Source of the DNA: Ignavibacteriota bacterium
GTDB taxonomy: Bacteria; Bacteroidota; Ignavibacteria; SZUA-365
Direction: 5' to 3'
NCBI GenBank assembly: GCA_016218045.1
Contig: JACRFB010000018.1
Location: 1-64,000, forward strand
Length of the DNA: 64,000 nucleotides
Made by a program: the position numbers and the translations under genes. Every line of letters starts with the position of its first letter. Positions within the stretch are counted from its first letter, which is position 1. Positions 13,442 to 17,042 of the stretch are shown here, in pieces. The notes beneath the pieces were generated by a model. That model ran no database searches. It worked only from the letters and a program-made list of their open reading frames with translations, and had not been told where the DNA came from.

Positions 13442-13978
13442 TCACGCGCGCCCGATGAACTTCTCCTGAAGTTTTTTCATTTCCTTCAAATATTCAATTT
13501 CCAAGGCGAGACCTTTTAATTGTCTCTCCTTTTCCGAAATCATTTCTTTTGTGACAAGGGGAGTGCTGCCGAATATCGCAGGAAGTTTGGGAGAGGTGGT
13601 CTTGCGCACGGGTTTTGTTTTACCGGAAGAAATATTCTTTGAGGAAACGGTTGATCCGGCTTTGCGGCCCCGGCGTGTCTCTTCGAAGACAACGGCCCCG
13701 GCCTGTACCGCGTCGTGGAGTTTTTTCAACTTTTCGAACATCTCAACGGTAATTTTGCTGAGTTTCCGGTTTTTCAAATCGCCGATGGAAACCGGATTGA
13801 TATTCGCCTTTTTCCCGATTTTCGCCGCATTTGCATGCGGTTGTTCCAGCAGCTCATCAAACATGGAATACGCTGCCGCGAGATTTGGGAGGGTAAGCGG
13901 ACCATCAGGGACTGATTCTGCGCCGCCAAGTGCTTCCTGCTGCAATTTCGCAATTACCGACTGCGTGTTCTTTGCCAT
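13442..13978 (-). CDS. Unknown basic coiled-coil protein
   Basis: A 178-residue cytoplasmic protein I do not recognise. Residues 20-90 are helical, with a segment resembling a small DNA-binding fold (ANINPVSIGDLKNRKLSKIT, then VEMFEKLKKLHDAVQ). The middle is a basic, serine-rich linker (RRGRKAGSTVSSKNISSGK). The last 50 residues form a charged coiled coil (EKERQLKGLALEIEYLKEMK) ending KFIGRA. The frame is open to a GTG at 14032, but GAGGAA lies six bases before the ATG at 13978, which I chose. It is convergent with the SBBP gene, and its 5' side faces a repeat tract. A regulator is possible but unproven. Confidence 0.6.
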   Translation of the reverse strand: MAKNTQSVIAKLQQEALGGAESVPDGPLTLPNLAAAYSMFDELLEQPHANAAKIGKKANINPVSIGDLKNRKLSKITVEMFEKLKKLHDAVQAGAVVFEETRRGRKAGSTVSSKNISSGKTKPVRKTTSPKLPAIFGSTPLVTKEMISEKERQLKGLALEIEYLKEMKKLQEKFIGRA

Positions 13979-14067
13979 TTCGGGTTCCTCGAACAGTGTG
14001 AGCTGCACATTCATCAAACGAAATAAACACACGGAGGCGGAAAAAACAATTACGGTGGGCGTATTAG

Positions 14068-14345
14068 CGTAAAGGGGTAAAGGGGTAAAGGGGAAAGGGG
14101 AAAGGGGTAAAGGGGTAAAAGGGTAAAAGGGTAAAAGGGTGAAGGGGTAAAGGGGGGTAAAGAGGTGAAGGGGTAAAGTAAAAGGCGCCTCCGTCTACCG
14201 ACGTTCCACTTTGCTACCTTGCTACCTGGTACGTGGCTACCTGGTACGTGGCTACCTGGTACGTGTTTACTTGTGACGTGTTTACTTGTCACGTGGCTAC
14301 GAAACACACTCGCAAACAATCCCGCGGTCCAGCGCCAGCACCACT
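14068..14345. repeat. GGGGTAAA tract joined to family-B repeat (right part)
   Basis: 14070-14180 iterates GGGGTAAA and GGGGAAA with GGGG runs, an excellent G-quadruplex pattern. It then passes into GCGCCTCCGTCTACCGACG, TTCCACTTTGCTACCTTGC, a threefold GGCTACCTGGTACGT tandem and ACTTGTCACGTGGCTACG, followed by ACACACTC, CCCGCGG and CCAGCGCC. The part from about 14178 onward has a close relative at 29278-29400. The whole gap 13979-14836 contains no gene I can support; 14593-14836 shows nothing recognisable. Confidence 0.85.
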
Positions 14346-14836: not shown

Positions 14837-15367
14837 TTAATTCCCGTTTTTGGTTGCCCCGAAATTCGTGACTTTTCCGAGGATGCTGCTTCGTTCAATC
14901 GGGCCCAAAATCCTGGAGTCGATCGCTTCTTCTGTGTTGTCACCGAGAAGATAATAGGCAGTAGCGCTCAGTTTGATCTCTTTGCCGCCCGTTGCACCAG
15001 GGGAGTATTTTAGCCCTGTGGGGAGTACGAGCGCCTTTCCGTTTATCATCACGCCGTGCCCGGAGATCGCCATGGATTCTCCGGGGAGTCCGATGATGCG
15101 GCAGACCCAAACACCGAGATCGCTGTCAGGCGGCTGGAAGGCGACAATATCGAAACGACGCGGCTCATTGGATTGATAGGCAGAAAACAGAATGTTGAAC
15201 CGGCTTCCATTCGGGATTGTCGGTTCCATTGACGAGGACTGCAGTGTGTAGTCGCGGTCAGCGCAGGCATTAAATGCCGAGGTGAGAATCAATAAATACA
15301 GTGCGATTTTCAAGACTGTCCTCCACCACTTGTATTCGATCACCTCGAAAATACGTGATTCCAGCAT
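14837..15367 (-). CDS. Signal peptidase I-like (S26) protein lacking the catalytic lysine
   Basis: A 176-residue membrane-anchored homologue of signal peptidase I. Transmembrane segment at about 18-33 (VLKIALYLLILTSAFN); box B SSSMEPTIPNGS with the nucleophile position Ser46; box D VCRIIGLPGES; box E LLGDNTEEAIDSRILG. In active bacterial enzymes box D has lysine immediately before the R of (K)RxxGxPG. Here the codon is TGC, giving Cys89, so the general base is missing. Start codon is uncertain: the frame is open to 15460, where it would overlap the start of the divergent Tat-DUF362 gene; ATGs at 15421 and 15367 are the candidates. It may be inactive, use another base, or bind signal peptides. 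Confidence 0.75.
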   Translation of the reverse strand: MLESRIFEVIEYKWWRTVLKIALYLLILTSAFNACADRDYTLQSSSMEPTIPNGSRFNILFSAYQSNEPRRFDIVAFQPPDSDLGVWVCRIIGLPGESMAISGHGVMINGKALVLPTGLKYSPGATGGKEIKLSATAYYLLGDNTEEAIDSRILGPIERSSILGKVTNFGATKNGN

Positions 15368-15458
15368 GTGTTCAATATTTGCGGCACACGAGCGATTCGA
15401 TGGGGATGTTGTTTCGCACATCCGGAACAGAGTACCTTTGCGCAACGAACCGGTCGCC

Positions 15459-17042
15459 ATGAGTCACCCTTCCTGGTCCCGCCGAAATTTTCTCTGCACA
15501 GCAGGTATCGCGGCGCTCGCGGCTGCCGCACCGCGGGTATTGCCTGCCTCGCGTATGTTCACACCGCATCCCGCGGCGTATAAGTACCCCAATCCGGGGA
15601 GGATTGTGATCGTGCATCATCCGAACGCCGTGATCGGCGCGAACAATGCCGATTACAGCGTTGTGCAACAGATGTTCGATCAGGCCGTGATGCAGTTCAC
15701 CGGCATCACCTCTTCGCCTGCCGCCGCTCTCGCGTCCCTCTTCCCGGGTTTGACTACGTCGAAGAAAATCGCGATCAAACCGAACATCTACAATGCGAGC
15801 GTTCCTGCGCGCAAGGAACTCGCGAAAGCCCTAGTTACGCGGCTCGTACAGATGCTCGGAGGATTTCCCGCCGCGAATATCAGCTTCTACGAACGGCACA
15901 GCTTCGCCGCACCGGGGTACACGGCGGCATACTTTGGGCAGGCGGTGAATTGTGTCACGGACACGGCCTTTCCCGATCTGGGGTATACGATTCACTGCGA
16001 CGGACAGGACAGGCCGTACAGCAGGACGCTGCATGATGCGGACTATCTGATCAATATGCCCGTGCTCAAATCGTGCGCCTGCGGCGTGAATTTTCCCGTG
16101 ACGCTCGCCTTCAAGAATCACATGGGGACAGTCAATCCTGCTGGTCCGCTCGGCATACACGTGAACAAAACCGCCGTGCTCGATATCATGGCAGATCCGG
16201 TTCTGACAACAAAACAATGTCTCGTACTCACGGACTGTCTCTTTGCGATGTACAGCGGCGGACCGAGCGGTCTCCCGCAGGCAACGCCGCAGAAGATCAT
16301 GCTATCGCAGGATCCCGTGACGAGTGATTATCAGGGACTGCAATTGATCAACACACTGCGGGTGGCGAACGGCTATGCTCCGGTTTCCGTGCCATACATC
16401 GCGGAAGCCGCCGCCGCACCGTATGAGATCGGGATCGCCGATCCCGGCTTGATGAACGTCATCACCGTGAATCTGCCGGTCGAGCTGTTGTCGTTCACTG
16501 CCTGCGTGCGCGACGGCTTTGTGCTTCTGGAATGGACCACGGCGCATGAGACGAATAATCTCGGCTTCGAGATACAGCGGCGCGCGGCGGACAGTGAGGA
16601 CTGGCACAGCATCGGCGTCGTGGACGGACGTGGCACGACCAGCACCACGACGACCTACCATTTTACGGACGGGCCGCTGCCCGAGGTCCGCGAGGTGCTG
16701 CAGTATCGACTGAAGCAGATCGACTTCGATGGAACACACAGTTACTCCCACGTCGTGACTGTGCACAGGGAGCAGTCCGTTGCGTATCGTCTCGAACAGA
16801 ATCACCCCAATCCTTTCGGCACCGACACGGAAATCGTCGTCCACTGCAACGAGATGATGCATCTGCGCGTCGAAGTCTCTGACGCGTCTGGAAGGATCGT
16901 CGCGATACTCCGCGATGTCATCACCGACGCGGGTGATACACGCCTGCGCTGGGACGCCTCACGTTTCGCTTGCGGAATCTACACCTGCCGTGCGACTGCC
17001 GGCGCCGCGGCGCAGGAGATTCGCATGACAGTGCTGCGATAG
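15459..17042 (+). CDS. Tat-exported DUF362 protein with T9SS sorting domain
   Basis: A 527-residue secreted protein. It starts with a twin-arginine signal (SRRNFLCTAGIAALAAAA, residues 7-24). It is followed by a DUF362-type domain of about 350 residues (KIAIKPNIYNA, YLINMPVLKSCACGVNFPVTLAFKNHMG) that in other proteins often goes with iron-sulfur or metal sites. Then comes a fibronectin-like strand region (LLEWTTAHETNNLGFEIQRR), and a T9SS type A end domain (YRLEQNHPNPFGTDTEIVVH ... CGIYTCRATAG). The frame is open from 15282; 15459 was chosen because the Tat motif follows at once. A Tat signal on a T9SS cargo implies folding, perhaps with a cofactor, before outer-membrane export. It is divergent from the S26 gene. 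Confidence 0.85.
   Translation: MSHPSWSRRNFLCTAGIAALAAAAPRVLPASRMFTPHPAAYKYPNPGRIVIVHHPNAVIGANNADYSVVQQMFDQAVMQFTGITSSPAAALASLFPGLTTSKKIAIKPNIYNASVPARKELAKALVTRLVQMLGGFPAANISFYERHSFAAPGYTAAYFGQAVNCVTDTAFPDLGYTIHCDGQDRPYSRTLHDADYLINMPVLKSCACGVNFPVTLAFKNHMGTVNPAGPLGIHVNKTAVLDIMADPVLTTKQCLVLTDCLFAMYSGGPSGLPQATPQKIMLSQDPVTSDYQGLQLINTLRVANGYAPVSVPYIAEAAAAPYEIGIADPGLMNVITVNLPVELLSFTACVRDGFVLLEWTTAHETNNLGFEIQRRAADSEDWHSIGVVDGRGTTSTTTTYHFTDGPLPEVREVLQYRLKQIDFDGTHSYSHVVTVHREQSVAYRLEQNHPNPFGTDTEIVVHCNEMMHLRVEVSDASGRIVAILRDVITDAGDTRLRWDASRFACGIYTCRATAGAAAQEIRMTVLR

What the first reader, a model, noticed from the sequence alone, without database searches (positions are those of the whole stretch)
14837..15367. 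Signal peptidase I homologue with cysteine in place of the catalytic lysine
All other S26 boxes are intact, including Ser46 and the DSRxxG box, but box D reads VCRIIGLPGE, with Cys89 where the general base lysine should be. Either the protein is a pseudo-protease (binding or regulating signal peptides) or it uses a different base. It sits divergent from a Tat/T9SS cargo gene, so it could act on that cargo.
Basis: partly seen in the sequence, partly recalled or inferred. Interest (0 to 1): 0.6.

Follow-up and report, generated by a model that had tools for sequence, protein, structure and literature searches.

The report
Signal-peptidase lookalike missing catalytic lysine
This gene makes a protein with the fold of the enzyme that trims signal peptides, but it and its few relatives have lost the lysine the enzyme needs and that lysine's supporting serine, so it most likely binds exported proteins without cutting them, as the streptococcal pilus helper SipA is thought to do.

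Summary
The ORF at 14837-15367 (-) is an S26 protein (Pfam 90.5 bits; model pLDDT 87) with TGC/Cys where LepB has Lys145, and an intact nucleophile Ser. AAR to TGC needs three base changes, so a single-base error cannot explain it. Cys is not a conserved new base: the protein belongs to a small clade (6 proteins in 5 of 591 genomes searched; support 99/90 with the motif columns removed) whose base position reads C, H, H, F, N, Q. All six have Ala for Ser278 (GDNTx[DE]AxDSR), and one has also lost the nucleophile. Of 180 S26 sequences compared, 166 have Lys plus Ser278; all 7 with Ala278 lack Lys. E. coli LepB K145C is reported inactive. The best structural match is SipA, a known non-proteolytic homologue. 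Likeliest reading: a membrane-anchored (perhaps lipid-anchored) pseudo-signal peptidase; two canonical enzymes are encoded elsewhere in the genome. A Ser-His enzyme remains possible for the two His members. The link to the neighbouring Tat/T9SS gene is unsupported: the two are not co-inherited, and these genomes each hold at least 150 T9SS tails.

The parts
14837..15367 (-). S26 signal-peptidase-like gene, 176 aa (in-frame upstream ATG at 15460 would give 207 aa)
   Evidence: ORF and Pfam/NCBIfam matches; the length from 15367 fits the relatives, 161-176 aa
15101..15103 (-). TGC, Cys89 (120 of 207) at the LepB Lys145 general-base position
15230..15232 (-). Ser46 (77 of 207), nucleophile position (SSSMEPT), retained
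14924..14926 (-). Ala148 (179 of 207) at the LepB Ser278 position, which stabilises Lys145 in active enzymes
   Evidence: role of Ser278 from PMC4049620
14912..14944 (-). box E, GDNTEEAIDSR, in the clade form GDNTx[DE]AxDSR
15263..15265 (-). Cys35 (66 of 207) after the hydrophobic N-terminal segment: possible lipobox Cys, weak here (FNAC), good in four of the relatives
   Evidence: helix 2-35 in the model
15459..17042 (+). divergent neighbour: DUF362 protein with a Tat-like signal (RRNFLC) and a T9SS-type C-terminal tail; context only, not shown to be linked

Best explanation
A pseudo-signal peptidase. The protein keeps the S26 catalytic-domain fold and an N-terminal membrane anchor (perhaps a lipid anchor), with the domain outside the inner membrane. 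It has lost the Lys general base and the Ser278 that steadies it. Shown here: the substitutions, their clade-wide pattern and the predicted fold. Inferred: it cannot carry out Ser-Lys catalysis, and it uses the retained substrate cleft to hold an extended peptide of an exported protein without cutting it, as a chaperone, adaptor or decoy in the manner proposed for SipA. The client is unknown. Ordinary signal-peptide cleavage is left to the two canonical S26 enzymes encoded on contig C13.
For: Six-member clade with C/H/H/F/N/Q at the base position, Ala at Ser278 in all, nucleophile lost in G068; clade support 99/90 with those motif columns removed. In 180 S26 sequences, all 166 with Lys and a readable box E keep Ser278, and all 7 with Ala278 lack Lys; the RDD-fused L044 shows the same double loss outside the clade. 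LepB K145C is inactive and is rescued only by turning the Cys into a lysine analogue (Paetzel 1997 as told in PMC10531186). Best fold match is SipA 4n31, Z 17.0, 2.2 A over 131 residues, which lacks both catalytic residues and shows no peptidase activity (PMC4049620). Two canonical S26 genes with Ser, Lys and Ser278 are in the genome.
Against: The nucleophile Ser is kept in five of six members, and two members have His, which serves as base in Sec11. SipA's high rank may partly reflect its compact size. No client or conserved gene neighbourhood was found, so the binding function rests on analogy.
Confidence: 0.7

Rival explanations
1. An active protease with another base: Ser-His as in Sec11 for the two G033 proteins, and in this protein the Cys thiolate, an acidic residue of the GDNTx[DE]A loop, or the substrate itself.
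For: Ser kept in five of six; His in two (WCHR, like Sec11-type boxes); a conserved acidic residue in box E.
Against: Phe, Asn and Gln in sister proteins cannot serve as base; no alternative Lys or His is conserved; LepB K145C is inactive; G068 has lost the nucleophile while keeping the clade's box E.
Confidence: 0.17
2. A decaying relic of a duplicated signal peptidase under relaxed selection, without a function.
For: Rare (5 of 591 genomes), patchy, long branches, degenerate active site.
Against: All six ORFs are intact across two orders; the fold residues and the clade-specific GDNTx[DE]AxDSR box are kept; G033 keeps two copies.
Confidence: 0.11
3. A sequencing or assembly error at the Lys codon.
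For: Only one assembly was seen; reads are not available.
Against: Three substitutions in one codon with no frame change; Ser278 is lost too; the relatives also lack Lys.
Confidence: 0.02

Closest known systems
SipA of Streptococcus pyogenes (pilus assembly factor; PDB 4n31)
   Same: S26 fold without the general base; Ser278 position also changed (Arg in SipA); best structural match; small single-anchor protein
   Different: SipA lacks the nucleophile as well (Asp) and has Gly at the base position; it sits in a sortase pilus cluster. Here Ser is kept, the base position is Cys, and there is no pilus cluster next to the gene
SpsA of Staphylococcus aureus
   Same: Inactive S26 paralogue that lacks catalytic residues, next to an active SpsB in the same genome (PMC12445088)
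   Different: SpsA lacks two catalytic residues; here only the base and its partner serine are lost in this member
Signal peptidase I (LepB, SpsB; TIGR02227)
   Same: Fold, family score above cut-off, nucleophile Ser and most boxes
   Different: No Lys base, no Ser278; shorter C-terminal end
Sec11 / ER-type signal peptidase (S26B)
   Same: Two clade members have His at the base position, as in Sec11
   Different: Box E is of the bacterial type (GDN...DSR); the window protein has Cys; Sec11 is a weaker fold match (7p2q Z 7.9)
E. coli LepB K145C (laboratory mutant)
   Same: The same Lys-to-Cys change, reported inactive
   Different: The mutant keeps Ser278, so a lysine analogue made from the Cys restores activity

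Membership tests
Peptidase family S26 (PF10502) by homology | Family profile score above the curated cut-off, and fold | tested here: met
   90.5 bits against a cut-off of 22.9; LepB and SpsB at Z about 15, SipA at 17
Active signal peptidase I (Ser-Lys dyad) | Nucleophile Ser in box B | tested here: met
   SSSMEPT, Ser46
Active signal peptidase I (Ser-Lys dyad) | General-base Lys in box D | tested here: not met
   Cys89
Active signal peptidase I (Ser-Lys dyad) | Ser278 that stabilises the Lys | tested here: not met
   Ala148
Active signal peptidase I (Ser-Lys dyad) | Cleavage of preproteins | not testable with these tools
   Needs an enzyme assay
Sec11-type (Ser-His) signal peptidase | His at the base position | tested here: not met
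   Cys in the window protein; His only in L005 and L015
SipA-type pilus factor | S26 fold without the base | tested here: met
SipA-type pilus factor | Nucleophile also lost | tested here: not met
   Ser kept
SipA-type pilus factor | Lies in a sortase and pilin gene cluster | tested here: not met
   Neighbours are T9SS cargo-like and transporter-like ORFs
Lipoprotein | Lipobox with Cys after a hydrophobic segment | tested here: inconclusive
   Good in four relatives, borderline in L021, weak here (FNAC); LspA present in all five genomes

The most novel reading that the evidence does not exclude
A lipid-anchored clade of S26 proteins that has swapped the Ser-Lys dyad for variable chemistry (Ser-His in some, a Cys in this one) and works on exported proteins, perhaps T9SS cargo, outside the normal signal-peptidase pathway.
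Probability: 0.1. Interest if true: 0.65.

Novelty: new variant of a known kind. Interest (0 to 1): 0.38.

Why it matters
The pseudo-signal peptidases found in the papers read here are from Gram-positives (SipA, SpsA). This would be a separate lineage, in bacteria rich in T9SS cargo, in which the base is lost together with its partner serine while the nucleophile is mostly kept. It is a natural counterpart of the LepB K145C mutant and gives a direct test of what the S26 cleft does without catalysis. The curated model TIGR02227 scores it above its cut-off as signal peptidase I, so automatic annotation would be misleading.

Tried and rejected
Single-base error: rejected (three changes; relatives also lack Lys). 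Another Lys as base: no conserved Lys in the clade; distances could not be measured, as no model coordinates are handed out. Cys as a conserved new base: rejected, seen in one protein only. Link to the Tat/T9SS neighbour: no co-occurrence, T9SS tails very common. Shared neighbourhood: none across the clade; two f12 members lie near a ribonucleotide reductase gene recognised by eye. Genome contigs, viral contigs, plasmids and phages gave only distant S26 relatives; of these only L016, L017 and L058 were read, and they have Lys. The box D pattern scan gave otherwise chance or unrelated hits. Promoter scan: nothing above chance. Paper searches for S26 proteins with Cys at the base position found no natural case.

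Full report
Observation. The minus-strand ORF 14837-15460 contains a nearly complete S26 domain (Pfam PF10502 90.5 bits, TIGR02227 82.5 bits). From the ATG at 15367 it is 176 aa, the size of its relatives. HMMER alignment to solved signal peptidases puts a Cys (codon TGC, 15103-15101) on the catalytic Lys and an Ala on the box E serine equivalent to LepB Ser278. AAA/AAG to TGC needs three substitutions, so a simple read error is not credible.

Genome. Two canonical S26 genes lie on contig C13 (34104 and 35291), both with Ser, Lys and Ser278. By eye they sit between a LepA GTPase-like and a HemW-like gene. This ORF is the third S26 copy.

Relatives. Profile searches over 591 genomes (294 of the class; 395 of the phylum, overlapping, at a stricter cut-off) found close relatives in four other genomes only: G006 (same family), and G033 (two copies), G068 and G098 in another order. 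The base position is Cys (window), His and His (G033), Phe (G006), Asn (G068) and Gln (G098). All six have GDNTx[DE]AxDSR, so Ser278 is Ala throughout. G068 has also lost the nucleophile (GEAM). The six form one clade: support 95/92, and 99/90 with the nucleophile, base and box E columns removed. The tree tool warned of long branches (window with G006), so the inner order is unsure.

Lys and Ser278 together. In 180 S26 sequences (from a Pfam search of 90 class genomes plus the earlier hits; some partial), 166 have Lys with Ser278 and none has Lys with Ala. Ten lack Lys, seven of them with Ala. Fisher p is 1.3e-10 counting sequences and 7e-4 if the clade counts once. The set is enriched for relatives of this clade, so the frequencies are not estimates for the phylum. 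The RDD-fused L044 (Asp at the base, Ala278) shows the same double loss outside the clade. PMC4049620 states that Ser278 is involved in stabilising Lys145.

Structure. AlphaFold2 on 19 aligned sequences gave pLDDT 87.2, with an N-terminal helix and the S26 beta domain. VIA-align ranks SipA first (Z 17.0, 2.2 A over 131 residues), then LepB and SpsB at about 15; Foldseek agrees on the family. SipA is compact, which may favour its score. No coordinates were available for measuring distances, but no Lys or His column is conserved in the clade.

Mechanism. The closest experiment is E. coli LepB K145C, reported inactive and rescued only when the Cys was converted to a lysine analogue (Paetzel 1997 as described in PMC10531186). 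With Ser278 gone, the base position free to vary, and one member without the nucleophile, loss of catalysis is the best reading. Binding of exported peptides in the cleft is inferred by analogy with SipA (PMC4049620). The Ser kept in five of six and the two His members leave room for an active variant.

Anchor. In all six a Cys follows the hydrophobic N-terminal segment, 10-16 residues before the SxSM box; in four it reads as a good lipobox, in the window protein as a weak one. All five genomes have LspA. Lipidation is a hypothesis.

Context. The divergent gene (15459-17042) is a DUF362 protein with a Tat-like signal and a T9SS-type tail. Orthologues at 53-56% identity occur in most relatives that lack the S26 gene, and G006, which has the S26 gene, lacks one. 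Each of the five genomes has at least 150 T9SS tails (the search stops at 150), so a neighbouring T9SS gene is not surprising. In G006 the S26 gene follows a subtilase with a T9SS-like tail on the same strand. A role with T9SS cargo is not excluded but has no positive support.

Verdict. A real and rare protein in a clade of degenerate S26 proteins that I did not find described in the papers searched; pseudo-signal peptidase with a probability of about 0.7.

Noticed in passing
L044:967-2013 (G359): RDD-domain protein fused to an S26 domain with Asp at the Lys position and Ala at Ser278 while Ser is kept: an independent double loss outside this clade.
   Followed up: partly
L024 (G074), L045 (G314), L220 (G027): Other S26 proteins with both the nucleophile and the Lys lost (Asn/Gly, Asn/Gln, Ala/Glu) but Ser278 kept: degenerate signal peptidases seem to have arisen several times in this phylum.
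   Followed up: partly
L016:4875-5432 (Omnitrophota): S26 homologue with Lys and Ser278 but Ala at the nucleophile position (TTAMEPT).
   Followed up: no
window 14069-14300: Tandem repeats downstream of the S26 gene: an 8-bp unit GTAAAGGG (about 14 copies) and 15-bp units.
   Followed up: no
G033 C1:389651-391799 (L046): Two tandem copies of the clade, both with Cys-His (WCHR) in box D, separated by about 1.2 kb that holds an opposite-strand lipoprotein-like ORF matching DUF3108_like.
   Followed up: partly
window 13442-14032 (-): 196-aa ORF without a Pfam or NCBIfam match at E 0.001.
   Followed up: no
   Followed up: no
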